Source: a virus
Virus record (IMG/VR): IMGVR_UViG_3300032326_002107
Span: 1 to 40,137 of that record
Strand: one strand, 5' to 3'
DNA length: 40,137 nt
Of this stretch, positions 3,691-38,059 are shown piece after piece. The notes below the pieces were generated by a model. The model worked only from the letters and a program-made list of their open reading frames with translations. It was not told the DNA's origin and searched no databases. The stretch's first letter is position 1. Every line of letters begins with the position of its first letter. A program made the translations under genes and the position numbers.

Positions 3691-4410
3691 TCAGTCCTCC
3701 TCTACTTCCCAGCAACGGGTCTCGAATGGGCAGTACCCACAGAGCCAGTTGCGCTTACCGCCTGATCCGGTCAGGCGTTCCGGCAGCTTGCCAGTTTCCT
3801 GGAAGCCTGCAAGTGCACCAACGCGGGACTCCACTTCGGCATCCCACGATGGATCGTACTCAAGGACGTACTCCTTAATCGCGAAGTCGTCCTTGCAAAT
3901 GTAGGCAAACCGCACAGACTTGAGCTTATCCCCAAGTGGTGGGATCACCTCGCCGTCGCGACGGACTCCGCCGTACTTACGAAGGCAATACACATAGGCC
4001 TTTGTCTGGCCAATATGGTCTTCCTTTGGGCCATCGAGCTTCTTAAAGCCCCAGGCCTTGGTGGTCTTGTACTCCAAGACCTGCGCCTCATCGGGTGACA
4101 GCATGATCACGCCGTCGACGGAACCGGTAAGGTTCAGGTCAGGCGAGTAGATCTTTACCTCGTCGTATACCGGGAGCCCTGCCGTATTGGCAACGGCCTC
4201 CTGGATAAACTCGTGGTAGATGTGTCCCTGTCGTAGGGCGCGCTTGCTCGATGGGTCTCGCTCGTCCGATGGTACGGTAGCCCGGATCTCATAGACCGCC
4301 TTGCGGTCGCAGCCGTACAGGCTGGAGGGGTGCCACTTACCGTCAGGTTCGCGCGGCGTCTCGAGCATTTCGATGTGGGCATCCATTGCCCCGGAGATGG
4401 TGAACTCCAT
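3691..4410 (-). CDS. Cas4/RecB-like PD-(D/E)XK exonuclease with probable Fe-S cluster
   Basis: A 239-residue protein starting at ATG 4410 behind AAAGGAG; an in-frame extension to 4563 would run through the divergent promoters and is rejected. Motifs in order are: C34 in LYGCDRK; H66 and E67 in GHIYHEFIQ; D99 in TGSVDGV; E113 and K115 in LEYKTTK; Q135 and Y139 in GQTKAYVY; and a C-terminal triad C224, C227, C233 in LCGYCPFETRC. This is the full Cas4/AddB-type arrangement, with one N-terminal and three C-terminal cysteines expected to hold a 4Fe-4S cluster and a D-ExK-Q core binding metal. Related phage proteins are 5'-3' exonucleases paired with annealing proteins, as here. It is the first gene of the leftward replication operon. 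Confidence 0.85.
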   Translation of the reverse strand: MEFTISGAMDAHIEMLETPREPDGKWHPSSLYGCDRKAVYEIRATVPSDERDPSSKRALRQGHIYHEFIQEAVANTAGLPVYDEVKIYSPDLNLTGSVDGVIMLSPDEAQVLEYKTTKAWGFKKLDGPKEDHIGQTKAYVYCLRKYGGVRRDGEVIPPLGDKLKSVRFAYICKDDFAIKEYVLEYDPSWDAEVESRVGALAGFQETGKLPERLTGSGGKRNWLCGYCPFETRCWEVEED

Positions 4411-4434
4411 GCGGTACTCCTTTCTTGGACGAGC

Positions 4435-4463
4435 AGCATAACAGGGTCGCAGAAAGTTTGCAC
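4435..4463 (-). promoter_or_regulatory. extended -10 promoter of the leftward replication operon
   Basis: Read on the minus strand, TATGCT (plus 4435-4440) is preceded by TGT (4441-4443), giving the extended -10 form CCCTGTTATGCT. Seventeen bases upstream is GTGCAA (4458-4463), a weak -35. Transcription would start near 4428, leaving a leader of about 18 bases carrying AAAGGAG before the ATG at 4410. The same CCCTGnTA core occurs in both rightward promoters nearby. Confidence 0.6.
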
Positions 4464-4488
4464 ACGTTTTGCAAAACCCTGGTACACT
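4460..4488 (+). promoter_or_regulatory. rightward extended -10 promoter with palindrome in its spacer
   Basis: TACACT at 4483-4488 is preceded by TGG (4480-4482), forming an extended -10. The -35 is poor (GCACAC at 4460-4465). The spacer contains the perfect 12-bp palindrome GTTTTGCAAAAC at 4466-4477. Six bases after the -10 lies G4495, the predicted start, which is also the first base of the cloverleaf RNA. A second copy of the whole unit, ACACG to the -10 with the same 21-base distance, lies at 4852-4878. Confidence 0.6.
4466..4477. repeat. 12-bp palindrome, candidate operator between divergent promoters
   Basis: GTTTTGCAAAAC is a perfect inverted repeat. It occupies the spacer of the rightward promoter and lies immediately upstream of the leftward one, so a bound dimer could control both. 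An imperfect version, GTTTTTGCAAAC, sits at 4856-4867 at the same distance from the next extended -10. No cognate regulator is identified. The small basic protein encoded at 4591 is a possible but unsupported candidate. Confidence 0.45.
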
Positions 4489-4494
4489 GCCACC

Positions 4495-4565
4495 GGGCCC
4501 GCGAAGATGGTCTCGCGCTGTTGCGGGGACGTAACGCCAGGTGCAACTCCTGGCCGGGTCCACCA
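4495..4565 (+). ncRNA. tRNA-like cloverleaf in the 5' leader, ending ACCA
   Basis: The 71 bases fold by eye into a cloverleaf. An acceptor-like stem of 7 bp pairs 4495-4501 (GGGCCCG) with 4555-4561 (CGGGTCC, one G-U), followed by unpaired A and CCA at 4562-4565. A first arm has CGA/TCG (4502-4504 with 4513-4515) and an 8-base loop containing GG; an alternative 5-bp version CGCGA/TCGCG competes with the acceptor end. A middle arm pairs 4520-4525 with 4530-4535 and is capped by GGGA, a GNRA tetraloop. The last arm is 5 bp (CCAGG/CCTGG) with the 7-base loop TGCAACT, close to the tRNA T-loop pattern. There is no 7-base anticodon loop, so it is not a decoding tRNA. The first base coincides with the predicted transcription start, so it would form the very 5' end of the mRNA. 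It may be a degenerate tRNA, a tRNA mimic or a leader control element. Confidence 0.55.
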
Positions 4566-4577
4566 GTATCTAGATAC
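4566..4577. promoter_or_regulatory. palindrome GTATCTAGATAC, candidate operator
   Basis: A perfect 12-bp inverted repeat directly after the cloverleaf and just before the Shine-Dalgarno AGGAGG of the gene at 4591. The same 12 bases recur at 37199-37210 inside an array of related sites in the other divergent control region. As RNA it would make only a very short hairpin, so a DNA-binding site is the better guess. Confidence 0.5.
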
Positions 4578-4590
4578 AGGAGGTAGTTAT

Positions 4591-4839
4591 ATGCAAGTTA
4601 CTGTAACTAGTAATCTAAGAGAGAAGCTCGACCGAGCAAAAGATCCGGCGCTACGTAAGGCGCTTAAGGCCGCCATCTACCTGGAGGTAGAGCGTGGCCT
4701 CGAGGAGAAGTTTGGCAAGGCGTTCCTGGACATGCCGTCGACTACCGTCTGGGCGAGCAAGGGTGTCCAGAGAGTAAGCGGCAGGTACGGGTACCGCCGT
4801 GACGCACGCAAGACCCGGCGCAACTACTCGCTGTGGTAG
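4591..4839 (+). CDS. small basic hypothetical protein (82 aa)
   Basis: Starts at ATG 4591 behind AGGAGG; the frame stays open upstream, but earlier starts would cross the cloverleaf. The product has an alpha-helical N-terminal half (residues about 8-48, rich in Lys, Glu, Ala and Leu) and a strongly basic C-terminus (SGRYGYRRDARKTRRNYSLW). The Arg/Tyr-rich tail suggests nucleic-acid contact. As the first gene of the rightward transcription unit, controlled by a structured leader and flanked by palindromes, it could be a regulator, but no helix-turn-helix or other named domain is visible. I do not recognise the family. Confidence 0.7.
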   Translation: MQVTVTSNLREKLDRAKDPALRKALKAAIYLEVERGLEEKFGKAFLDMPSTTVWASKGVQRVSGRYGYRRDARKTRRNYSLW

Positions 4840-4878: not shown

Positions 4879-4922
4879 CTAAGCGGCGGACGCTTGTCCG
4901 TCATACAGCTAGGAGGTTCACA

Positions 4923-5713: not shown

Positions 5714-6217
5714 ATGGGGGCGTTTAAGAATCGTGACATTGACGAAAAGAACGCCCTCCGCGAGGCCGCAAGGTCTCGTGGGGGGCAATATACCGACACC
5801 TTTGAGGGAACGTTTTCGGTTATCTATTCGGAGGCTCTCGAGCTCCTTATCAACCGGCAGCGTAAGTATGGCCCAGACAATATCCAGCAGCAAGGAATCT
5901 ATGGTGTCATTACTCGGATTGCTGACGACAAACTTGCACGTGTAAGGCAGTCGCTCAATGGTCGGCTCGAGAATGGCAAGCTCATTCTTGACCCAATCGA
6001 GACCAAGGGAAATACCGGCGAAGGGGACGATAGCTTTGAGGATGCCCTCCTTGATATCGCCAACTATGCGCTGATTGCCCTGGCCCTCCACCGTGGTGAG
6101 TGGGGCAAGCCGCTGATCGAGGACACCGACGACGAGTTTGATAAGTTCATTGACGAGTGGACGAAAGATGATGACTTTGATCTTCCGGACATCCTGAACA
6201 ATATTGGAGACTTGTAA
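5714..6217 (+). CDS. MazG/DUF1599-like nucleotide-metabolism protein
   Basis: A 167-residue acidic protein, start ATG 5714 after GGGGGT. The central part reads as the nucleotide-modification-associated (DUF1599) type related to MazG pyrophosphohydrolases. It has a helix with YSEALELLINRQRKYGPDN (about 38-56), GVITRIADDKLARV, and a second acidic helix SFEDALLDIANYALIAL at about 106-122, where E and D residues would bind Mg2+. The C-terminal 35 residues are very acidic. In phages, MazG-like proteins hydrolyse nucleoside triphosphates or alarmones, or supply modified nucleotides; the substrate here is unknown. It is followed directly by the peptidase gene (TAATG overlap). Confidence 0.65.
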   Translation: MGAFKNRDIDEKNALREAARSRGGQYTDTFEGTFSVIYSEALELLINRQRKYGPDNIQQQGIYGVITRIADDKLARVRQSLNGRLENGKLILDPIETKGNTGEGDDSFEDALLDIANYALIALALHRGEWGKPLIEDTDDEFDKFIDEWTKDDDFDLPDILNNIGDL

Positions 6218-15064: not shown

Positions 15065-18000
15065 CTATGGTTGGTCTGCCGTTAATTCGTCATAGACCTC
15101 TTGCAGGATCTCTGAAGTATATCCGATACCATAGCTTGTTACAGATTCGAAGAATACTCCCGGATCTTCTGATGCGCGGTACTTCGGGAATACCCCAATT
15201 GCGCCACCGAGGTAGCGGGTCGGGCGGCCAAGGCTTGCGCCGATCTCCGAGAGGATTGGGGAGACAGGGAGGAACATTGTGGCAAGGCGCCAGGCGGCAG
15301 GGTTGTCCTCGTACATCGCCCGGTAGTCTGGGTTGTCAGCAATGGCACGGTAGTGGGCCTCGGCAAACTGTTCTGCCCTGACGACGTTGACACCGGACAG
15401 CTCGCCGTTGTGCGTCATCAGGGTCGTCATCATCCACTTGGTCGCCTTGATCATGTAGGAGGCTGGCCAGTACAGGAAGTAGTTATTGATAATCTTCTCG
15501 ATATTGGTGCGGTTCGGGTTACCGCGTACCAGGGCGAGCATGTTGTTATAGCTCTCCTGGTTCATGTCATAGAGGCGCTGAAGCATCGGTCGGAGCAACT
15601 CGCGCTCCTCGTACGTCAGGGCCTTGGCCTCGAGCTTGTTCATGGCCTCATCAAACCCAAGGGTATCAATCAGGTAGAGCTCCTCATCAAGGACCTTGGT
15701 CAGCGGCTTCTGGCGCTCTTCGGCAATCTTGCGGAGGTTGACGATATACGGATCAAGCTCGCCGTGCTCGTCGAGGGCTCGGCCGGTAGCGCGCAGGACA
15801 TCCTCGTCGGGGTCGATACCGACGGTCGCGACAACCCGGCGGGCGTTATTCTCGCGGATCTTCTCCAGTGCACGAGTGAATCGGCCAGAAAGACCACGCT
15901 GGTCTCGGGTGTCATGGAAACCACCGCCATGCTCGCCGAGCAGGGTCTCAACATCGAACTGGCCTTTTGGCGCCTTGAGGTCCTTTGCCCCGGTCGCCTG
16001 GGCTACCGCGTCGCGGATAGCCTTGCGTGGGTCGATGGCATAGAGGCGTTCGTCGATGAGGCCAGCATGCTTGAGGAAGGCCAGGTCAGGGAGCGCATCC
16101 TTTGCCCCGCCAAACCTGGTAGCCTTGAGTCCGAACTGCGACCCAAGAATAATGTCGGCCTCGAATGCGTTGAGTGCGTGCCAGCGCGGGTCGAGATAGA
16201 ATCGTAGGGTTGGGTATGCCCATCGCACCATTCGCAGTCCACCGCGAAGGAACGGAATCCGCTGCTGTGTGCGGTAGGTGGTAGCCAGAACGCGGGTGAG
16301 GAAGCCTGGATTGCGGACGGTATCAGAGTCGACCTTCTTGTAGATCTTGCTCGCGGATCGCTCGATAGCGCGGACAACGCCGGCCTCGCCACCAATATTC
16401 TTAAGGAACTGTCGTCCCTCTTCGGTCCCCTCAAATACCTCGGTGACTGCCTTGGTAATAGCGCCATAGCCCATGGACTTCAACGAGTAGGTGGCAGCAA
16501 ACGAGTGGTAGTACTGGGTACGCTTCTCGTTGAGCTTGGCAATCAACTCGTTGACCATGTCTACCGTCGCGCCCTTCGAGATCAGCTCGCGGTACAGGAA
16601 CTGGCGAGTTGCCTGGGCTTCGTTGATAGCCGTTGGCTTCTCGAGGAGCCAGCCGACGGTATTAAATAGACGGTCGATCTTGGTCTTCTCAATAACCTTG
16701 CCGATGGTGGTTGCACGCCACTTTGCACCAGACGAGACGTACTGCGAGACGCTCTCGCCGGTCGTCGGCGTGACTGCCAGCTGAGGCGCGCCAGTGATGG
16801 TGTACGGGGAATTCTCGGCATCAAGCTTGCGCTGGATTGGAGCAAGTGTTTCCAGGTAGTCAGCCGATAGGCCGTGCGTGCGTCCATCCCAGTGCGGAGG
16901 ACGGTTGCCTGGGATATTACCGGCATCGATGTCCATCTGGGCAAGTCGCTCGACAAGTTCAAGGTCGCCCGTAGCGGTTAGGTCGGCTTCGGCCCTAGTC
17001 AGTGCAGCCAAGGTGCTTGGTCCATGGGCAACACCAGCAGCCTTCTCTGCGCCGCTAGCCTCAAAGATCTTCTCAAAGACCAACGCGACATCAGGGTTAA
17101 TATCTGGAACTTGACCATCGACGCCAGCATAGATTCGCTGCATGTGCTCGCTGAGGAGCTTGAAGCTATCCTCAAGCGGCGTGCCGGCCCAGTCGCCCTT
17201 GGTGACATAGGCCTCAAACTGCTGAGCGAACTCTTCGTTTAGGCGTCCGTCGATGCGGAGCTTGTTTGCGCCGGTACGAGTACGTGCGTACTTAATCCCT
17301 AGCGCATCAGCAATATCGAATAGGGTACTGTCCGGAAGCCACCCATTATTCAACCAAGTGTGGGCCATCTCGTGGATGACCGTGGACAGGTCCGCCTTAC
17401 CCTTGAACAACTGGACAAGTGACTTGCCCTTGTCAACGTAGGTGGTCCGTCCAAGGACTTCCGCTTTGCTCGCGGTCGAGGACTTCCGGATCATGTTGAG
17501 CGTGCCGCCAGACAGGGTCGGGTCGACAATCTCAAGTGCTGCCTGATTGAATACCGACAGTACCTGTGGCTGGCCAAACTTCATTTCAAGTCGGTCAACT
17601 GCCTGCATCGCATCGTAGCCATGAGTCATTGCGTAGATTGTCGCCCATCCCTCGTCAACGGACATCTCGCGGTGCGTGGCCCTGGCGACGTATTCACCAA
17701 AATTTTCAGCAAAATTTTCAAGGCTGGTTGTATCGGAATTAAACGCACGTTGCAGGGTTTTGCCGATGACCAGGTCGGTAGGCCTGTCAATGCGATCTGA
17801 CCCAGAAGCAATTAGCCTAAAGAGGTCGCCAACAACCTCATCAAGAATCTCTGGATTGTTCATATTCTTTTCAAGGACTTCCTGAATGTCGATCATTTCA
17901 TCTTGAATGAGCCGGAATCCATCATCCCCATCATTGAGTGCGTCAATGGTCTGATTGACAACTTCGGACATCCACTTAGAAAATAGCTTGTTGAACTCTG

Positions 18001-21000
18001 GTGATCGATTGGCATCGGCAAGCGCAAGGGCTGCACTCTCCTTATACTTAAACACCCTGGCATCCGAAGCAAGTCCAGCCTGTAGAACAATACCCTTAGC
18101 CTCTTCGGTTACTGGGCTAGCATAGTCAATAACACCAGATGGCTTAAATGGCGTTACAGTCCCAAGCTCACCGGTGCTTCGCGCTAGGACTTCTGACTGC
18201 TCATTAAACGTATCGATGTTCATCTTGCCCGACTTGTACAGGTCGTAAAGTTTTGCCTGCTCTTCAGTAATTTGGCCAGCCTGCTCAGGGAATCTTCCGG
18301 CGTACGTTTCAGCAGTCTTGACCGGCGGTACCTGTTCCTTGCGAAGGAGCGGCCCAAGTGCCTGGTCCGCCTGTGGATCAGAGAGAGCCCAGTAATTTCC
18401 GTATCCAACATTTCCGAAGAACATCTTCGGCTTGCCATTGATGGCGTCAAGTCCGGCAAAGCGGGCCATCTCTTTGCTGGTATATGTCGTCGATACACCA
18501 CCGCTGCCCAAACCACGGAAGACCACCGCCCCGTAACGGTCAGGATTAAAATCTTCCGGAGCTACGCGACGTGGCAACTTACCCTTATGCAGGTAATAAA
18601 CTTCATCAATAATGTTTGCCAAAGCAATAGGTTCGGCAATGTCCATGTCTTTTGTAAGGTCATCCAGAATCTTGTCAAGAATTGGCCATGTGTCGTCAAC
18701 GTCCTTCATAGGTGCGCGAACTTCGATATCGTCGCCCATCACAAACTTCGGACCGGTCGATGGCTTGGCAACAGCCGGAAGATCCTCTGCGCCAGGTCGG
18801 ACCTTATTAAACTGCTTACCTTCTAGGCGTGGGTCCACGACGTTGACAACACCTGCATTGAACAGGAGGAGCTGGTCGCCCAGGCGTGGGTCACCGGCAG
18901 CGTCTGCCGCACGCTCGCCACCGCGAATGATGACGGCGTCAAGTCCCTCGCGGATGGCGAATGCTGTAATCATGTCGTAGTTAAACGGTCGCAGGCCAAT
19001 GCCACGCGTATCGACCTCTTCGCCAGTAACGATATCAATAGTCTTGCTGCCAGTCATTGGGAAGAGTTCAGGCATTACTTCGCCAAGCGCGAGCGGCTGT
19101 CGGGCTACTTCGGTAGGAAGCATCCCCGCAGCCTGCTCCTTTGAAAGCATTTCAAGGCCTTGCTTGTTTCTCGGTTTCCCAACGTGGGTCACAACGCCGT
19201 TAATAGTAATCTGGCCAATTTCTGTTCGTGCCGCACCACGCATATCGGAAACATCTAGAATGGCAACATTTGCGTCCTTCGAGAGGGTGGCTTTGATCAT
19301 GACGCCCTCGCGGACATCGGCTGGTTTAATCTTTAGGTCGCCCTCAGTCTGGGCATACCGGGTAGCTACCTCTTCGGCAGTTCCACGGATTGGTGTCGTG
19401 AAGTAATCAGTTGCCCAGTACCCGCGCGGGGCCGCACCGTACAGGCCGCTCCTACCCATGCCTGCTTCGTAATTTGGCTGGTCGATAAGGCTCTCGGCGA
19501 TACGTCGTGATGCGCCCTTGATGCCACCTTCCATCTCGTAGCCGCCCTTGCGCGTAACGCCACGGTACAACACAAGCTCGCCATCGGCTACGCGGGCTGC
19601 AAACTCAGCTTCGGTAATAGCGTTTCCAGTGGTTTCCGGGAATGCCTTATTCGCGTACTCAAGCAACTCTTCAACTGTTTCAGCCCTGGTAAAGAGTACG
19701 TCTGAGTAAAACAAACTACCTTGTGGGTCTTGACCAGCACGGAGGTATTCGTCAAATGGCGGGAGCCCAAGCCCTACATCATAACCTTCTTCTTGAATGG
19801 CAGCCTTGGCCTGGGCGCGACGTGTTTCTGTGCGCTGAATTTCTCGGGTCTGCGAGAAGGAGGCAAAGCCCTCAGCCTCGTCGGCTGCGGCTCGGTGAAC
19901 TGCGGTCTCCTCTGGGGCAGCCTCAGTAAAGGCCGCGACTAGCGCCCGGCGCGCTTCCCCAACTGGACCTTCCATTCCAGCTGCGTACCTGGACTCCGTC
20001 TCCGCTTTTCGGGCGGCAAAGAACTCGTCTTGGACGGCTGAGATTCTTGGGGCAAACTCGGCTGCGGACTCTTTTCCGCTTGAGGCAACGAGTCGTCGGA
20101 CACCGGATTCTGCGAAGACATCTGCACGCTTGTACTCCCTTGCATCTGGGAACTTAGCCCAGTCATTCGATACACCAGTCGTTGCCACAAGGCTCGTGCT
20201 GTGTGGCCTAATCATAGCACCATCGGTAAGATTTGACAGCGCATCTCGAGACTTCATGGCAATGAGTTCCAGCTCGTCTACCGTCAGGGCAGCCTCGGTT
20301 GGCAGGTAGAGACGCTCAAATTCGCCTAGGAACTCATCCTCGATAAGGAAGGACTTCTGGGTGGCAAATGGTCGAGCAGGAATGGACGGGATCTCTTCGC
20401 CACGGACCAGGGTGCCGGCAGCCTTGGCACGGTTAAAATCGTCAAAGTTCTTGATTGTTACGTACGAGCCATCAGCAAGGCGCTCAGCGTATCCAAAGTT
20501 GGTCATGGCGTTCTGTCCGCCAAGCTCCACAAGGGCAACCTTTCTGGCACCCTTGCTCTTGAACATCTGCATGTGCTTAATCAAGGCATTGAGCTCACCC
20601 TGCGGGCCAAACGAGTAGCCGTCTGTCAGGTGACCAAAGGTATCATGGACTGCCCGGAACAGGACATTGATCTCGTCTGAGAATGCTGGGTTGCTCGGGT
20701 AGGAGCCGAAGACAAACAGGTGCTTGTTATCCCGTAGGTCGGCCTGGGCGAGGACGCCCTTGTTGCCAGCCTGGATGTCGCCACTGCCCATGAGCTGTAC
20801 CGGTACGCCAGGGCTTCCAACGAAATCGGCACCGACATTGTACGGGTCAACTGCGTGCGCCTCGAATCGATAGCCGGCTCGGTACAGCGCGTCGTACTGC
20901 TCGCGGAGTTCGTTCAGGAACTCCTGTGCCGCAGCAGCAAACTCCGGCTCAAGGTTGGTATCTGTTCGTACGGTCCAGTTGTAATCTGTAGCAGGACCGA

Positions 21001-24000
21001 GGTTCCCCTCAATAACGCGGCCAGTATCGTAGTTCTTTGTCTCTGGCGCTCGGTAATACCGGTCAGCAAGTCGTCGGTGGAATGGGAAGTCGGGGGTCTG
21101 GTAGCTACGATGCACCGGTCGTGGCAGCCCTAGCTTGTCGGCAATCCTATTCGAGATAGAGGCAATCGGCTGAAGGTGATCGTGGACGCTGTAGTTCTCG
21201 TAGGCAATATCGTAGTTGGTCTTTGCCTGGAGGTTAAAGTTTGTATCAATGATGCGGACGTGTCCCTCGCCGTTGATCGTATCCGGTACGACAGCAAAGG
21301 CCATGCGCCGGTTATTCCCCGAGAGCAGATCATCGATCTGGAATCGGTCCATACCCTTGGCTGCATAGATCTCCCGGATCTCTTCGTCCGAGGAAAGGAC
21401 CTTGCGGATGGACTCAATGGCAGAGTCCACAGAGACCCCAGGAGGCAGCGGAATATCTACGGTAGGGCGAACATTGTAGAGGCCCTTTTTAGTCGCGTCC
21501 TCGACGCTCCTAACACCCCGTGGGAGGGATGCCCAGGCGATGGCGAAGTCCTGCTCTGCGGCAACTGCAAGGTCCCGCAGGAATGAGGTAATAGACTCTG
21601 GAGCCCCGACGACGTCCATCGTAACCGTTGGGGTAGATCCAGCCTTAGAGATGCCGATAACTGTTGGGCGTTGGGCAAACTCTTCCCCGGCAGCGGTACG
21701 CGCTGCGACGGCAACGCCATTCTCCTGGGCAAGTCGCGTGACTGCGTCAGAGTTAACCCAGGCAATCGTCCCTGCGCGAATCTGATCATCAGAGAGTCCG
21801 CTAAGATCCGGCATGAGCTTTCCTAGCGTTGGCGAGTTCTTGCTTGGGACAAGGTCAATCAGTACGCTTGCGCTGCTCCCCTCGATAGCGTCGGCAACGG
21901 TCCCGCTAAAGTCACCAATGACCTTCTTAAAGTGGTACCAGCCAAGCGCCTGAATTTCTGCTGCGGTCCAGTCGGTACGACCGAGCCAGCCCTGAGCGTT
22001 GAGGTCTCGGGTCCACTGGTTTACCTTCTCTACCGACCACTCGTACTGGAACTCATTAGCAATGATTCCCGGCTTTGTCAGCTCTGGGTTGACACCACCG
22101 CCGTATGCCGCGCTCTTTGCAACGCGCATATCAACGAAGCCGGTATTGGAGATCGTGTGGCGGTCAACCGCTACTGGCATGGAATCCACAGCGCTGTTGC
22201 CAAGGACGGTGCGAGCCTTCTTGCCCAGGAATGAGTCAGCAAAGTCAGTGATCTTCTTGGCCCCTGGCCCGTAGGCAACCGGCTGGCCGTTGAGCGCAGT
22301 GAAGATAGCCTCAGAGACTTTCTTCTTTCCGATCATGAGGGCGTACTGCTGCTTGGCCTTGAACGAGCGGGATGTGCGTAGGTACTTCGATGCATTCTCT
22401 AGGTCAGTCAGGCCGACGAGCATGGTACGATAGATAGAGGCAACTGCCGCGAACCCATTGACAACGCCCTCTGCCTGTTGCGAGTGGATGAACGCGTACA
22501 GCACAGCCTTGCCGAGTCGGTCCTTGCCGTAGAATAGCTCAATAGCCTTGCGGAAATCCTGGTACCAGTTGGCATGGCGGAAGGCCTCAACATAGGTCTC
22601 TGGCTGTCCGGCCTTGACATTGAAAGCCTGCTCGATCTGTCGCATAAAGGCTTCAGTAGATACGTCGCCGACAGCAAGCTCAAGCTTTGTTCCGCCAGGC
22701 GCATCAACCGAAAGGACACGGTAGATCTCGTTGCCCTCTCGGCGTAGTCCAAGTTGCGAGAGATCCTCGTCTGAGATCTCCCGCACTTTAATCTTAATGT
22801 TTTGCGGATCAAACTTGCCCTGCTCCATAGCAGCGGAACGCTTGAATCCGTAGACATACTCGAAGAGCTTCTCGTAGACTTTAGCCTTCTTGGTAATGTT
22901 GGCCATGTTGGCCTTGTCCCAGGCAACCTGGGCTGCCTTGACCTGCTGCTGTACCTTGCGCGTAGCCTTGGCCCCAGCAGACTTTGGTCGCGGGCCGATA
23001 TCGTTGACAACTTCTGGAATACCCTTGATGCCCTTGGCGATGAGGAACGCTGCTGCCGTCTCTGCTGGGACATGGTTAATACCGCTTGGGGCAAAGCCCT
23101 TTGCTACCATCCAGCCCTTGCCGGCAAGCGTCTTGTTGCTCTCGACAACGATCTGCTGTCGGGATACCGTTGCCTTGGCAACCGCTGGCGGCACAGGAAT
23201 GATCGTGTCGTTTGCTGCCTCGAGTGCGCCGATTGGCATTCCGGATCGGATAAAGTAATCGAGCGCGGCCTTCTGCGGAATGCGGACCTGCTTACCGCCC
23301 TTGGTGGTAATGAACTGGCCCTCTTGGCGTAGCTGTCCAGTCTTGGACTTAAGGAGCTCGCTTGTTGCTACCTGCTCAGGTGATGCGACACCCTCGGCAA
23401 TAAGATCAGATAGAACCTCATCAAGGCTTGCGACTGCCTCTGCCTCGTCCGCATTCTGTCGGACCTGGTTGAAGGCTGGATCAATAGTGATGCTCTCTTC
23501 AATCTGCTCAACCGACACGAAGTTTCGCTTGGCTACCAGGCCAGCGCGCTCTCCGGTAGAAGCAAACTGCGCGGCAAGGTCAAGCGATGCGATGGCAGAA
23601 GCAACACCAATGTCACCAGCAATCTCTGGTAGATTAACAATCTGGTTGACCACTACGTCCATCTCTGCAACGAGCGGTGAGTTCTTGTAGGCAAGGGCGC
23701 GCAGGCGTGTGCCTAGGTCGCCAAGCTCGTCAGCGATTAGCCCGATGCGGCTGGCTGGTACTGAGGTGACAACGTCTAGCCAGTTACCAATTGCGGTCTC
23801 GAGCTTTGTGGTATCGGTGACATCATCCAGGGCCTTGTTCAGGTCGGAGAATGCAGCGGCAACACTTACTGGACGATTACCTCGAGCTTGCCGAGCAACT
23901 TCCCCTTCCGTGGCTGCGGGATACGGGGTTCCTTCGGAGCGGAGGCGTTCAACCCAACCGAGTCCATTGGGGATGGTGGGGTCGACTTTGCCGGTTGTTT

Positions 24001-27000
24001 CGAGTTCTTGGGCTTCATCTAGTAATTCCTTTCTTGACGTATATCGCTTAATGTTTGCTGGCTCAACAATCTCTTCCGGAGTCATTTCGTCAAAGGCCTT
24101 GCGAAGGTCGTTAATAACCTTCTTGAAAACCTTGTCCTTAATAACCTGTTCCGGAAGAGCGTCGAAGTAAATCGTGATATTGCCGCCACGAGTATCGGAA
24201 ACAATATCAATTCCGGCAGCAGATGCGCGCTCTACGATGCGATCAAGCGTTGCCTTCTTTAGCGGGCTGAGCTTCTCTGCCGTCCTAAACGCAACCCGGG
24301 TGCCGTTAGCCTCCAGGCCCATGGATGCCATCTTCTCGCCGGTTGTGGCGACAATAGCAACCTTGGCCTTTGGGTTAGAAGCAAAGGCAATGGTTGCAAT
24401 AGCAGCAACGGTCTTTCTCTCGGCTGATTCCAAGGTCAATCGAATTAGTGGGGCGACTGCGCCACCCTTAGTAGAACCAAATCGAGTCTCGACCTTCGCA
24501 ACGGTACGGGCTAGGTCAGTCGCAACAAGTGCACGGCTCATCACATCCACGGTCTCGTTGACCTCTGGGGCTACCGTTTCTAGTCGCGCTGTCGTTGCTG
24601 GTCCATAGACTCCGACGCGCTCGAGCACGTCGTCAACAGGAGTGATGACTTCTGCTGCGCTGGTCGTCTTAGCAGATACTGCCTCGATACCAGGGACATT
24701 GTTCTTTCCGGCAGCTTCGCGGATTGCCTCGCCCTCGAAGAGTTCGTCATATGTCGGGGCCTTCGCCTTAATTGCGCGAATACGCCCAAGCAACTCCTCC
24801 TTGCTTGGTAGATCGCTACCCTTCATCATTGCACGGATAAAGAAGTTGGCCGTTGCCTCGCCGATAAGCTCAAGCTTTGTATCGATAAGCCGTGGCATCT
24901 TGGTTACGACAAGGTTGGCAATGAAAGTTCGCTTGCCGGCATCGCTAAGCTTTTCGTAGTTAGATAGATCAATAACCGCCTCAATGGCAGCAAGATTCTC
25001 CTTAACAATTGCCGAACGACGAACACCGAGCACAACGGTGCCGACGGCATTGCCATGATCAACTAGTGGGCGGTATGCCTCTTGCCAGTTAATCCATTGC
25101 TGGTGTACGCCCTGAAGTCGTCCTGGTCGAGCCACGCCACCTGAGATGATGGCAAAGTCTCCAGCGTTGTTGTTCCAGTCGGTAGCAATATCAAGGAGCA
25201 TTGCCTCGGTAATCTTACCGTCTCGTCGAAGGACCTCAGCTCGCTTTGATGCAAGTTCGCCAATCTCCTGAGCGGCAGCCTGGAGCGACAGCGATGAACC
25301 AGCCTTAATCTTAATACCATCAAGGTATGGAAGTACTAGGCCATTGAGACCATGCTTCTGTGAGCCTCGAGCAGCAACCTGGATCATGAGCATATTGATA
25401 TACTTGTCGTAGTTTTCCTTTGTCCCGAACAAGGCATAGACACGCTCGCGCTTCTGTGATCGCGACATGCCCTTTAGTTCATCTACTGGAATGTTATCGT
25501 CGGCAATCTTGACAATCAAGGATTCGTCAAGGGATACATTTAGTCCACGGCTTGGCACCTTACGCCACCAATCAAAGCCGCGAGCAACTGTTGGGATATC
25601 CAGCGCTGCGCCAATAGAGATGAGTTCGCTATTTCGGAGCGGATTGTATGCCCAAGATGAATCAATAAAACCGGCAATATCATTCGGGATAAACCCGCCC
25701 TCCTCCTCCCCCGGGAGAAGTGAGGCAAGCCCGGTACCGACATATGATCCAACCGCAGTACGGGCATAGATACGGACACCACGTGCCATGCCAGATGACT
25801 TGGATGCCATCCACCCAGCAGCGCCCTGGACCGTTAGCTCGGCAATAGCACCGCGCTCAATGGCAGCAATGGATTCCGCAACGTTGACTGTTCCCTCGGG
25901 GATAAGTCCGGCAGCTCGAAGTTCAGCCGCAGCCGTAGCGCCAACGATGCGCTGCTCTGTCTTAATAAGCTTATTAACCAGGGGCATAGCAAGTCCGCCC
26001 TTGGTCGAGAGCTTTGTCCCAGTCGTAACGGCCTTAAAGGCTGCACCTGATCCAGAGCCAACGAGGTTGACAAGTCCACCCATGCCCGCCATCATGGCCG
26101 AACCGCCACCATACTTTCCTTGACCAAACTCTCGGCGTTCGGTATCAAGACTGAGGAGGGTGCGCGGGTCGAGGTTAATAACCCCTACTTGGTCTGGTCT
26201 ATCAAGAATAAACTGAAGGTCTTCCTCGGTAAAACCGTTAAGCATGAGCTGTTCTCGAAGGTCATCGACGGTTCGGATTGGCTTGTTAAAATCAGCACCG
26301 ATCATGCCGGCGCCAACCTTGGCAATCTGCCCTAGGACACCAGACTCGTTAAGTGTGACGCCAACGTTATAAAGGTTCTGCTTTGCCTCAAGATCATCTA
26401 GGTAAGACTGCTCGTTATCAAATGGGTTGAGGGAAGCAAGACCCTGTGCCGCAAGGCCGATAGCCGAGATTGCGAGGGCAATACCACCGCCGATAGCCGC
26501 ACCAAGTGGTCCACCGGCAAGAGCACCAAGCATAACGAAGGTGGTGAGCCGGCCGATATCTGTACCCATGTCATTAAGGTTGTAACCAAGAGTTGGGTTA
26601 TCAGCGGCATCGATAAGGGCGTTGCCCTGCATCCGCCCATACTTTTTCCAGGCAGTAACAAGAGGCTCGTTTCCTAGCGCCCTGGCATATGATCCAGTAA
26701 TAATTCCTGCGCCAGGGATGCTGTCAATTGTCTTAATGGCGCTATCTAGAGCATCTTGCTTCCCTAAGGCTGTGGCTGCAATAGCGAGCGGCTTTCCCAG
26801 TACGTCCCCGGCCCCAGTATAGAGCGAGCTAACGATGTCGCGGCTTGGATCAAAATTACCTAGGTTTGTTAGAACGCCAGCTTTATCGATACTTGGGGCT
26901 GGGCCGAGCGGCTGTAGATTTACTCGCTCAGGGAAGCCGCGCTCCCGGGATGTCTGAGTATTATTGCTAGAGTTGCTTCCGCCCTGGTTGTTGTAAATAG

Positions 27001-27091
27001 GAACAACAGGCGTTACAGGGTAGACCTCCGGCTTTGGACTCCCCGAGCCAGACCCGGAGCTACTGCCGTCGGGATCAAAATCAAATGGCAT
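15065..27091 (-). CDS. giant polyvalent-type virion protein (4008 aa) with HExxH peptidase and ART-like domains
   Basis: A single open frame of 4008 residues, about 30% of the window. Visible parts in order are as follows. A disordered Ser/Asn/Pro-rich start (1-60). A Gly/Ala-rich apolar segment at about 182-220 that could cross a membrane. An unassigned block at about 1600-1720 with KITDFADSFLGKKA and AAEIQALGWYHFKK, a pattern I associate with giant phage proteins. A conserved block with HDTFGH at 2149-2154, E2166, H2173, E2189 and GGQN at 2192. An ADP-ribosyltransferase-like stretch from LYRG (R2510) to GVMIKATL. A second ART-like stretch from FRGLG (R2859). A metallopeptidase motif HEMAH at 3240-3244 with E3286/E3287 as the probable third ligand. 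The C-terminal 400 residues are helical and include NPNRTNIEKIINNYF. It lies between the portal/843-aa genes and the scaffold, so it is probably packaged in the head and ejected with DNA to protect it or act on the host. Domain identities are inferred from motifs. Confidence 0.8.
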   Translation of the reverse strand: MPFDFDPDGSSSGSGSGSPKPEVYPVTPVVPIYNNQGGSNSSNNTQTSRERGFPERVNLQPLGPAPSIDKAGVLTNLGNFDPSRDIVSSLYTGAGDVLGKPLAIAATALGKQDALDSAIKTIDSIPGAGIITGSYARALGNEPLVTAWKKYGRMQGNALIDAADNPTLGYNLNDMGTDIGRLTTFVMLGALAGGPLGAAIGGGIALAISAIGLAAQGLASLNPFDNEQSYLDDLEAKQNLYNVGVTLNESGVLGQIAKVGAGMIGADFNKPIRTVDDLREQLMLNGFTEEDLQFILDRPDQVGVINLDPRTLLSLDTERREFGQGKYGGGSAMMAGMGGLVNLVGSGSGAAFKAVTTGTKLSTKGGLAMPLVNKLIKTEQRIVGATAAAELRAAGLIPEGTVNVAESIAAIERGAIAELTVQGAAGWMASKSSGMARGVRIYARTAVGSYVGTGLASLLPGEEEGGFIPNDIAGFIDSSWAYNPLRNSELISIGAALDIPTVARGFDWWRKVPSRGLNVSLDESLIVKIADDNIPVDELKGMSRSQKRERVYALFGTKENYDKYINMLMIQVAARGSQKHGLNGLVLPYLDGIKIKAGSSLSLQAAAQEIGELASKRAEVLRRDGKITEAMLLDIATDWNNNAGDFAIISGGVARPGRLQGVHQQWINWQEAYRPLVDHGNAVGTVVLGVRRSAIVKENLAAIEAVIDLSNYEKLSDAGKRTFIANLVVTKMPRLIDTKLELIGEATANFFIRAMMKGSDLPSKEELLGRIRAIKAKAPTYDELFEGEAIREAAGKNNVPGIEAVSAKTTSAAEVITPVDDVLERVGVYGPATTARLETVAPEVNETVDVMSRALVATDLARTVAKVETRFGSTKGGAVAPLIRLTLESAERKTVAAIATIAFASNPKAKVAIVATTGEKMASMGLEANGTRVAFRTAEKLSPLKKATLDRIVERASAAGIDIVSDTRGGNITIYFDALPEQVIKDKVFKKVINDLRKAFDEMTPEEIVEPANIKRYTSRKELLDEAQELETTGKVDPTIPNGLGWVERLRSEGTPYPAATEGEVARQARGNRPVSVAAAFSDLNKALDDVTDTTKLETAIGNWLDVVTSVPASRIGLIADELGDLGTRLRALAYKNSPLVAEMDVVVNQIVNLPEIAGDIGVASAIASLDLAAQFASTGERAGLVAKRNFVSVEQIEESITIDPAFNQVRQNADEAEAVASLDEVLSDLIAEGVASPEQVATSELLKSKTGQLRQEGQFITTKGGKQVRIPQKAALDYFIRSGMPIGALEAANDTIIPVPPAVAKATVSRQQIVVESNKTLAGKGWMVAKGFAPSGINHVPAETAAAFLIAKGIKGIPEVVNDIGPRPKSAGAKATRKVQQQVKAAQVAWDKANMANITKKAKVYEKLFEYVYGFKRSAAMEQGKFDPQNIKIKVREISDEDLSQLGLRREGNEIYRVLSVDAPGGTKLELAVGDVSTEAFMRQIEQAFNVKAGQPETYVEAFRHANWYQDFRKAIELFYGKDRLGKAVLYAFIHSQQAEGVVNGFAAVASIYRTMLVGLTDLENASKYLRTSRSFKAKQQYALMIGKKKVSEAIFTALNGQPVAYGPGAKKITDFADSFLGKKARTVLGNSAVDSMPVAVDRHTISNTGFVDMRVAKSAAYGGGVNPELTKPGIIANEFQYEWSVEKVNQWTRDLNAQGWLGRTDWTAAEIQALGWYHFKKVIGDFSGTVADAIEGSSASVLIDLVPSKNSPTLGKLMPDLSGLSDDQIRAGTIAWVNSDAVTRLAQENGVAVAARTAAGEEFAQRPTVIGISKAGSTPTVTMDVVGAPESITSFLRDLAVAAEQDFAIAWASLPRGVRSVEDATKKGLYNVRPTVDIPLPPGVSVDSAIESIRKVLSSDEEIREIYAAKGMDRFQIDDLLSGNNRRMAFAVVPDTINGEGHVRIIDTNFNLQAKTNYDIAYENYSVHDHLQPIASISNRIADKLGLPRPVHRSYQTPDFPFHRRLADRYYRAPETKNYDTGRVIEGNLGPATDYNWTVRTDTNLEPEFAAAAQEFLNELREQYDALYRAGYRFEAHAVDPYNVGADFVGSPGVPVQLMGSGDIQAGNKGVLAQADLRDNKHLFVFGSYPSNPAFSDEINVLFRAVHDTFGHLTDGYSFGPQGELNALIKHMQMFKSKGARKVALVELGGQNAMTNFGYAERLADGSYVTIKNFDDFNRAKAAGTLVRGEEIPSIPARPFATQKSFLIEDEFLGEFERLYLPTEAALTVDELELIAMKSRDALSNLTDGAMIRPHSTSLVATTGVSNDWAKFPDAREYKRADVFAESGVRRLVASSGKESAAEFAPRISAVQDEFFAARKAETESRYAAGMEGPVGEARRALVAAFTEAAPEETAVHRAAADEAEGFASFSQTREIQRTETRRAQAKAAIQEEGYDVGLGLPPFDEYLRAGQDPQGSLFYSDVLFTRAETVEELLEYANKAFPETTGNAITEAEFAARVADGELVLYRGVTRKGGYEMEGGIKGASRRIAESLIDQPNYEAGMGRSGLYGAAPRGYWATDYFTTPIRGTAEEVATRYAQTEGDLKIKPADVREGVMIKATLSKDANVAILDVSDMRGAARTEIGQITINGVVTHVGKPRNKQGLEMLSKEQAAGMLPTEVARQPLALGEVMPELFPMTGSKTIDIVTGEEVDTRGIGLRPFNYDMITAFAIREGLDAVIIRGGERAADAAGDPRLGDQLLLFNAGVVNVVDPRLEGKQFNKVRPGAEDLPAVAKPSTGPKFVMGDDIEVRAPMKDVDDTWPILDKILDDLTKDMDIAEPIALANIIDEVYYLHKGKLPRRVAPEDFNPDRYGAVVFRGLGSGGVSTTYTSKEMARFAGLDAINGKPKMFFGNVGYGNYWALSDPQADQALGPLLRKEQVPPVKTAETYAGRFPEQAGQITEEQAKLYDLYKSGKMNIDTFNEQSEVLARSTGELGTVTPFKPSGVIDYASPVTEEAKGIVLQAGLASDARVFKYKESAALALADANRSPEFNKLFSKWMSEVVNQTIDALNDGDDGFRLIQDEMIDIQEVLEKNMNNPEILDEVVGDLFRLIASGSDRIDRPTDLVIGKTLQRAFNSDTTSLENFAENFGEYVARATHREMSVDEGWATIYAMTHGYDAMQAVDRLEMKFGQPQVLSVFNQAALEIVDPTLSGGTLNMIRKSSTASKAEVLGRTTYVDKGKSLVQLFKGKADLSTVIHEMAHTWLNNGWLPDSTLFDIADALGIKYARTRTGANKLRIDGRLNEEFAQQFEAYVTKGDWAGTPLEDSFKLLSEHMQRIYAGVDGQVPDINPDVALVFEKIFEASGAEKAAGVAHGPSTLAALTRAEADLTATGDLELVERLAQMDIDAGNIPGNRPPHWDGRTHGLSADYLETLAPIQRKLDAENSPYTITGAPQLAVTPTTGESVSQYVSSGAKWRATTIGKVIEKTKIDRLFNTVGWLLEKPTAINEAQATRQFLYRELISKGATVDMVNELIAKLNEKRTQYYHSFAATYSLKSMGYGAITKAVTEVFEGTEEGRQFLKNIGGEAGVVRAIERSASKIYKKVDSDTVRNPGFLTRVLATTYRTQQRIPFLRGGLRMVRWAYPTLRFYLDPRWHALNAFEADIILGSQFGLKATRFGGAKDALPDLAFLKHAGLIDERLYAIDPRKAIRDAVAQATGAKDLKAPKGQFDVETLLGEHGGGFHDTRDQRGLSGRFTRALEKIRENNARRVVATVGIDPDEDVLRATGRALDEHGELDPYIVNLRKIAEERQKPLTKVLDEELYLIDTLGFDEAMNKLEAKALTYEERELLRPMLQRLYDMNQESYNNMLALVRGNPNRTNIEKIINNYFLYWPASYMIKATKWMMTTLMTHNGELSGVNVVRAEQFAEAHYRAIADNPDYRAMYEDNPAAWRLATMFLPVSPILSEIGASLGRPTRYLGGAIGVFPKYRASEDPGVFFESVTSYGIGYTSEILQEVYDELTADQP

Positions 27092-37121: not shown

Positions 37122-37135
37122 TATGGCTGCCCCCT

Positions 37136-37213
37136 GTATCTAGATTCTATCTATAGTTTAGATTATATATATACTTAGATACTGTCTAGATACTACTTGT
37201 ATCTAGATACAAG
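37136..37213. promoter_or_regulatory. AT-rich island with an array of GTATCTAGATAC-type palindromes
   Basis: Copies seen are: 37136-37147 (11 of 12 identical), half-site TAGATAC at 37176-37182, 37182-37193 (10 of 12), and a perfect copy at 37199-37210 that extends to the 18-bp palindrome CTTGTATCTAGATACAAG (37196-37213). Between them lies AT-rich DNA with ATTATATATATAC (37162-37174). The same 12 bases occur at 4566-4577. Spacing of centres is 46 and 17 bases. Possible roles are repressor operators on the structural-operon promoter, or iterons with a DNA-unwinding element of an origin. Confidence 0.55.
37162..37188 (-). promoter_or_regulatory. candidate promoter of the structural operon
   Basis: On the minus strand, TAGACA (plus 37183-37188) and TATAAT (plus 37162-37167) are separated by 15 bases. 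The -35 falls in one palindrome copy and the -10 in the AT-rich stretch. The short spacer lowers confidence; several overlapping TATA-like -10s are possible. Transcription would cover the GTG start at 37121. Confidence 0.4.
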
Positions 37214-37549
37214 AGGAATTATAACCACCTGGGCAGAATCCTGCTCACTTTTGATGACGGCAGCTGCCAGACAGGGCGATGGACACCTTTTGGGCCTGCG
37301 TCTGTGACAGGGTACCAACCACACCTGAGCGATCTGTGAGGCGAGACCCCCATCCCCCCCGAGGCAAAGATCTTGGAATTCCGGCGGCTCTTCACATAAC
37401 ACTGGTTATCGGAACCATGTGCTGACCCTGGGGCTCCAAGGATCAGGTGGTGACGACCGGGGTGCTTTGGGACATGGAGAGAGGACGGTTGATACCCCTT
37501 GAACCTGGCACCTCGAGCCCTGGTCTGGAGCCCTGTCCACCACCCCCTG
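37214..37549. other. non-coding stretch without a recognisable gene
   Basis: About 336 bases between the palindrome array and the first right-arm promoter. Open frames exist on both strands (for example the minus frame across 37219-37677) but have no gene-like composition or Shine-Dalgarno and cross promoter elements. A C-run (GACCCCCATCCCCCCCGAG, 37348-37366) is the only striking simple-sequence feature and could form a G-quadruplex on the minus strand. I see no convincing structured RNA. Confidence 0.5.
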
Positions 37550-38052: not shown

Positions 38053-38059
38053 GGTCTCA

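What the first reader, a model, noticed from the sequence alone, without database searches (positions are those of the whole stretch)
4495..4565. tRNA-like cloverleaf forming the exact 5' end of a phage mRNA
A 71-base segment folds by hand into an acceptor-like stem of 7 bp followed by ACCA, three arms, a T-loop-like TGCAACT on a 5-bp stem, and a GNRA-capped arm instead of an anticodon loop. The extended -10 TGGTACACT places the transcription start at its first base. It sits directly before the Shine-Dalgarno of the first gene of the rightward unit. A non-decoding tRNA mimic as a leader could attract RNase P/Z, the CCA enzyme, EF-Tu or a synthetase, or protect the 5' end. I know of no described equivalent, though I could not search.
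Basis: partly seen in the sequence, partly recalled or inferred. Interest (0 to 1): 0.8.

Follow-up and report, generated by a model that had tools for sequence, protein, structure and literature searches.

The report
tRNA-like start of a phage mRNA
A phage messenger RNA appears to begin, to the base, with a compact 71-base fold whose upper half copies an alanine-type tRNA (acceptor stem, CCA end, T arm) but which has no anticodon, probably a protective 5' cap with possible tRNA mimicry; it is predicted from sequence only and occurs in just three known phage genomes.

Summary
The 71 bases are as described, directly after an extended -10 promoter and before the Shine-Dalgarno of the first rightward gene. 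The four-armed cloverleaf is only half supported. In the window it ties with another fold. In the one divergent relative (L003, four substitutions) two cloverleaf pairs break and a three-way fold wins by 4-7 kcal/mol under Turner 2004, keeping every pair.

The three-way fold has the layout of a D-armless tRNA or of the tmRNA tRNA-like domain: 7-bp acceptor with G3·U70, discriminator A, CCA, T arm (loop UGCAACU), a central hairpin with no anticodon and no D stem. A search descriptor (acceptor + T arm + CCA) arose 8 times in 3,200 simulated windows; none of the 8 had G3·U70 and A73. ARAGORN and the Rfam tRNA and tmRNA models find nothing.

Other predicted transcripts of this phage also start with hairpins at +1, one of them conserved with its whole loop changed. 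Most likely this is a 5'-terminal protective leader built on a tRNA-like plan. Alanine charging or tmRNA mimicry is possible but untested. Only three genomes carry it, two with identical elements, so covariation cannot be tested.

The parts
4459..4488 (+). Predicted promoter: weak -35 (4459-4464), extended -10 TGGTACACT (TG at 4480-4481, hexamer TACACT 4483-4488)
   Evidence: 4/6 at -35 with an 18-nt spacer plus an extended -10. The -10 and discriminator are identical in L003. Start site inferred, not measured.
4495..4501 (+). Acceptor-like 5' strand GGGCCCG (G3 pairs with U at 4559, the equivalent of G3.U70)
   Evidence: Pairs with 4555-4561 at P about 1.0 in both sequences for pairs 1-6; invariant in three genomes
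4502..4509 (+). 8-nt unpaired segment in the place of a D arm (CGAAGATG)
   Evidence: Unpaired in the three-way fold; two of the four L003 substitutions fall here
4510..4530 (+). Central hairpin, 8 bp with a one-base bulge and loop CTGT-type (one loop base differs in L003); no anticodon loop
   Evidence: U19-G33 becomes U19-A33 in L003 and one substitution is in the loop
4536..4554 (+). T-arm-like hairpin GCCAGG-TGCAACT-CCTGGC
   Evidence: P at least 0.98 in both sequences; invariant. The same T loop occurs in a genuine tRNA-Ala(TGC), L046:6598-6672
4555..4565 (+). Acceptor-like 3' strand CGGGTCC, discriminator A (4562), CCA (4563-4565)
   Evidence: Sequence; descriptor statistics
4566..4577 (+). 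Perfect 12-bp palindrome GTATCTAGATAC between the element and the Shine-Dalgarno
   Evidence: Second perfect copy at 37199-37210; conserved in the two relatives
4578..4839 (+). Shine-Dalgarno AGGAGG (4578-4583) and the 82-aa ORF 4591-4839, no recognised family
   Evidence: a 68%-identical homologue in L003
4849..4902 (+). Second promoter (-10 TATAGT, predicted +1 at 4885) whose transcript starts with a 7-bp hairpin 4885-4902, leader of the exonuclease gene
   Evidence: L003 changes all four loop bases and one pair to a wobble, no pair broken

Best explanation
The element is a 5'-terminal structured leader. [quoted passage not shown] I think its main job is to bury the 5'-triphosphate end of this phage mRNA in a helix. 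That would block 5'-end-dependent decay and set a stable platform upstream of the ribosome-binding site. The tRNA-like acceptor/T half probably adds further compactness or binding by a host tRNA protein, with alanyl-tRNA synthetase the first candidate. Shown by computation: sequence, promoter motif, three-way fold favoured in the relative, acceptor/T/CCA features unlikely by chance. Inferred: the start site, mRNA stabilisation, any protein binding.
For: Predicted +1 equals the first base of the closing helix in two distinct sequences. All four L003 substitutions are compatible with the three-way fold: three unpaired, one U-G to U-A. Two of them break cloverleaf pairs, and the cloverleaf loses by at least 4 kcal/mol in L003 under Turner 2004. 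Fold z is -3.2 in L003. Acceptor+T+CCA descriptor: 8 in 3,200 simulated windows. Other predicted transcripts of this phage also begin with hairpins at +1/+2: 4885 (stem kept while all four loop bases changed), 38059 and 39697 (lowest 0.5% of genome positions). Leaders of the Cas4-like gene in related phages L006 and L008 do too. Known precedents: 5' stem-loops stabilise bacterial mRNAs (PMC7509114) and T4 gene 32 mRNA (PMC8948821).
Against: Only two distinct sequences with four differences exist in the collections, so there is no covariation proper; random substitutions would spare all three-way pairs 16% of the time. In the window itself the cloverleaf is equally stable, and more stable under some parameter sets. 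Hairpins at +1 are individually weak evidence in a GC-rich genome: the 4885 hairpin is matched by 28% of random positions. The leftward promoter of the Cas4-like gene in this window has no strong 5' hairpin. The host is unknown and there are no transcript data. The stacked acceptor/T helix would be 13 bp, not the usual 12.
Confidence: 0.5

Rival explanations
1. A functional alanine-type tRNA/tmRNA mimic. The 71-nt RNA is cut from the mRNA at the CCA, charged by alanyl-tRNA synthetase through G3.U70-A73, and acts as a decoy or effector for AlaRS, EF-Tu or SmpB, for example to blunt host ribosome rescue.
For: G1-C72, G2-C71, G3.U70, A73, CCA, T loop and a stemless D region coincide with the defining features of the tmRNA tRNA-like domain (PMC3968760). 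0 of 3,200 simulated windows have the combination. The acceptor differs at one base of 14 from a genuine tRNA-Ala(TGC) that carries the identical T loop. The acceptor/T/CCA half is invariant in three genomes.
Against: The 3' end is embedded in an mRNA; no processing signal was found and RNase Z/exonuclease release is unproven. Rfam tmRNA and tRNA models do not match. G3.U70 was noticed after the fact. The stack has 13 bp instead of 12.
Confidence: 0.2
2. An ordinary GC-rich 5' stabiliser hairpin cluster whose resemblance to a tRNA is coincidental.
For: Several other leaders of this phage group start with plain hairpins. tRNA detectors are silent. Fold z in the window is only about -2. Scanning many windows will produce some look-alikes.
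Against: The specific acceptor+T-loop+CCA combination is rare (0.0025 per simulated window) and coincides to the base with a predicted start site.
Confidence: 0.2
3. A decayed tRNA gene that lost its anticodon arm and survives as a neutral or exapted leader.
For: A relative (L010) has a genuine tRNA-Arg(CCT) next to its Cas4-like gene, the neighbour of this element. The T loop and acceptor are those seen in real tRNAs.
Against: The L010 tRNA is on the same strand as the Cas4-like gene whereas this element is divergent from it, and no sequence similarity was seen by eye. Stable acceptor/T/CCA conservation argues against neutral decay. No intermediate is known.
Confidence: 0.07
4. An attP core: the 3' end of a host tRNA/tmRNA gene carried by an integrating phage.
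For: Phages that integrate into tRNA or tmRNA genes carry their 3' halves (PMC3029335).
Against: No tyrosine or serine integrase in the window or relatives. The 3' half occurs in only one stretch of the genome collection (84,980 species) scanned with a relaxed pattern, in an unrelated tRNA-Ala.
Confidence: 0.03

Closest known systems
tRNA-like domain of bacterial tmRNA
   Same: Acceptor helix with G3.U70, discriminator A, CCA, T stem-loop, reduced D loop without a stem, helix H2 in place of the anticodon arm (PMC3968760)
   Different: No tag reading frame, no pseudoknots, 71 nt, 13-bp acceptor/T stack, located at the 5' end of an mRNA; no match to RF00023
5'-terminal mRNA stabilising stem-loops (ompA, T4 gene 32 leader)
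   Same: Structure at or near the mRNA 5' end upstream of the ribosome-binding site
   Different: Here a three-way junction with a tRNA-like acceptor/T half and CCA instead of a simple hairpin
D-armless tRNAs and leaderless tRNAs (Nanoarchaeum equitans)
   Same: Topology without a D stem (from own knowledge); transcription starting exactly at the first acceptor base (PMC10100707)
   Different: No anticodon loop; 3' end continues into an mRNA
Viral 3' tRNA-like structures of plant RNA viruses
   Same: tRNA-mimicking viral RNA ending in CCA (own knowledge; review PMC5723415 seen as abstract only)
   Different: These sit at 3' ends of RNA genomes; this is at the 5' end of a DNA-phage transcript

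Membership tests
tRNA | Recognised by tRNA gene models | tested here: not met
   ARAGORN 0 genes; RF00005 no match at E<=10. Caveat: ARAGORN and Rfam gathering also missed a tRNA-Tyr-like gene with the same T loop in L014
tRNA | Acceptor helix ending in NCCA and T arm with T loop | tested here: met
   7/7 pairs, ACCA, loop UGCAACU with U54, C56, A57, A58 and Y60 but G55
tRNA | D arm and anticodon arm with 7-nt loop | tested here: not met
   No anticodon loop in either fold; D stem not formed in L003
tmRNA | Ala-type tRNA-like domain: G3.U70, A73, CCA, T arm, stemless D loop | tested here: met
   By sequence and predicted fold only
tmRNA | Tag reading frame, pseudoknots, 230-400 nt, match to tmRNA model | tested here: not met
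   71 nt; RF00023 no match in the window; ARAGORN no tmRNA
5'-terminal mRNA stabiliser | Base-paired structure beginning at the transcript's first bases | tested here: inconclusive
   True for the predicted start; start site not measured
5'-terminal mRNA stabiliser | Increases mRNA half-life | not testable with these tools
   Needs an experiment
attP in a tRNA gene | Integrase gene in the phage | tested here: not met
   PF00589 and PF00239 absent from the window and relatives

The most novel reading that the evidence does not exclude
A DNA phage makes a leaderless, anticodon-free, alanine-type tRNA-like RNA as the 5' end of an early mRNA, which is charged by the host alanyl-tRNA synthetase and mimics the tmRNA tRNA-like domain to interfere with ribosome rescue or to control its own gene.
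Probability: 0.2. Interest if true: 0.88.

Novelty: new variant of a known kind. Interest (0 to 1): 0.55.

Why it matters
tRNA-like structures are known at the 3' ends of plant RNA viruses and in tmRNA; my limited paper searches found none described at the 5' end of a DNA-phage mRNA. If the acceptor/T half is read by AlaRS, CCA enzyme, EF-Tu or SmpB, it would be a new way for a phage to protect or regulate a message or to touch host ribosome rescue. The G3·U70 pair gives a single-base test. If it is only a stabiliser, it still shows a phage group that starts its messages with 5' structures.

Tried and rejected
Cloverleaf as the conserved fold: rejected on L003. tRNA gene proper: rejected. Rfam family: no match, only chance hits below threshold. 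attP: no integrase, no host tRNA with this 3' end. More homologues: protein, promoter, operator and element patterns over viral contigs (8 scans) and genome contigs (2 scans) gave only L002 (identical) and L003; the phage reference collection has no relative of the two early proteins or the terminase. Short T-arm matches in E. coli and Streptomyces phages were plain hairpins or tRNA-cluster sequence at chance-level E-values. A ribosome-binding-site hairpin 4570-4610 was considered as a switch but is weak (z -1.25). A control Rfam search on L046 used the wrong strand coordinates and covers no tRNA; ARAGORN is the valid control there.

Full report
What is there. The window is a 40.1-kb viral contig with terminase, portal, major capsid, DnaB-like helicase, a Cas4-like nuclease and an exonuclease. 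Between the leftward Cas4-like gene (3691-4410) and the first rightward gene (82-aa ORF, 4591-4839) lies the reported segment. Its 71 bases are exactly as described. An extended -10 TGGTACACT lies six bases before 4495, and the Shine-Dalgarno AGGAGG begins 13 bases after the final A.

Fold. At 37 C the minimum (-34.6 kcal/mol) is a three-way junction: closing helix 1-7/61-67, central hairpin 16-36, T-arm-like hairpin 42-60. The cloverleaf is 0.2 kcal/mol behind, and the centroid is a cloverleaf. Parameter sets split on the window sequence. Against dinucleotide shuffles the fold is only modestly unusual (z -2.0). Within this genome it is in the lowest 0.5% of 71-nt windows.

Relatives. Patterns for the 82-aa protein, exonuclease, Cas4-like protein, promoter, downstream palindrome and the element itself found only two other genomes with the element: one identical (L002) and one with four substitutions (L003). 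The substitutions are C8U, A10C, G26A and G33A. In the three-way fold three are unpaired and the fourth turns a U-G pair into U-A. In the cloverleaf two pairs are lost. In L003 the central hairpin of the three-way fold has probability above 0.99 under the default parameters; the cloverleaf costs at least 4 kcal/mol more under Turner 2004, and the L003 shuffle z is -3.2. By simulation a random draw of such substitutions spares all three-way pairs 16% of the time, so this is a lean rather than proof, but it is the only comparative evidence and it goes against the cloverleaf.

How tRNA-like is it? The three-way fold has the order of parts of a D-armless tRNA: acceptor 7 bp, 8-nt D replacement, central hairpin, 5-nt linker, T arm, discriminator A, CCA. 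The third acceptor pair is G3·U (position 70), and with A73 this is the alanine identity set. [quoted passage not shown] A genuine tRNA-Ala(TGC) in a Candidatus Binatia genome has the same T loop UGCAACU and an acceptor differing at one base. That tRNA was found with a pattern fixed on the 3' strand, so the likeness is partly by construction. In simulated windows of the same local composition the acceptor+T+CCA descriptor appears 8 times in 3,200, and never with G3·U70-A73. G3·U70 was noticed after the fact, so that last figure should be read with care. The tRNA and tmRNA covariance models and ARAGORN do not recognise the element. ARAGORN and the Rfam tRNA model also miss a tRNA-Tyr-like gene with this T loop, so their silence is not decisive.

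Context. The next promoter of the same operon (predicted +1 at 4885) starts its transcript with a 7-bp hairpin. In L003 all four of its loop bases changed, one pair became a wobble and no pair broke. Predicted transcripts at 38059 and 39697 start with hairpins as stable as the lowest 0.5% of genome positions. The Cas4-like leaders of relatives L006 and L008 differ in sequence but keep a +1 hairpin. The rule is not universal: the leftward promoter at 4428 lacks a strong one, and the 4885 hairpin alone is not rare. A related phage, L010, carries a real tRNA-Arg(CCT) just upstream of its Cas4-like gene. The sequence from the middle of the element to codon 11 of the gene is the longest identical block between window and L003 in the region compared (96 bp, 4528-4623), although the rest of that gene is only about 63-77% identical. 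So the T arm, CCA, palindrome, Shine-Dalgarno and first codons are held together by some DNA- or RNA-level constraint.

Mechanism. The best-supported reading is a 5'-terminal protective structure: the first base is paired, and 5' stem-loops are known to stabilise bacterial and phage mRNAs (PMC7509114; T4 gene 32 leader, PMC8948821). The tRNA-like half is probably real rather than accidental, but whether any tRNA enzyme reads it is untested. RNase P would not be needed if transcription starts at the acceptor's first base, as for the leaderless tRNAs of Nanoarchaeum (PMC10100707). Charging would need release of the CCA end from the mRNA.

Limits. There are two distinct sequences, no transcript data and no host. 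Searches of the held open-access papers found no description of a tRNA-like 5' leader in a DNA-phage mRNA, but the library is incomplete.

Noticed in passing
window 37130-37220 and 4566-4577: Palindrome GTATCTAGATAC occurs perfectly at 4566 and 37199 (there within CTTGTATCTAGATACAAG), with one-mismatch cores at 37137 and 37183 in an AT-rich non-coding stretch: possible operator or replication-origin repeats.
   Followed up: partly
window 37585, 38059, 38610, 39697: Repeated rightward leaders with GC-rich hairpins; three follow TTGACA/TTGACG-type promoters with TAATGT/TAAGAT and start at about +1, one (38610) follows the palindrome AAAAGTACTTTT instead.
   Followed up: partly
window 37641 and 38594: Perfect palindrome AAAAGTACTTTT just upstream of a gene and of a hairpin leader.
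   Followed up: no
window 4528-4623: 96-bp block identical to L003, running from mid-element into codon 11 of a gene that otherwise diverges strongly; includes a possible hairpin 4570-4610 around the ribosome-binding site.
   Followed up: partly
L010:5993-6068: Genuine tRNA-Arg(CCT) gene directly upstream of a Cas4-like nuclease gene in a related phage.
   Followed up: yes
L014, reverse strand about 5737-5830: tRNA-Tyr-like gene (anticodon GTA, long variable arm, T loop TGCAACT) in a 219-kb viral contig, missed by ARAGORN and by the Rfam tRNA model at gathering score.
   Followed up: partly
window 15065-27091 (-): A single 4008-codon open reading frame, about 30% of the contig, next to the capsid and portal genes.
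   Followed up: no
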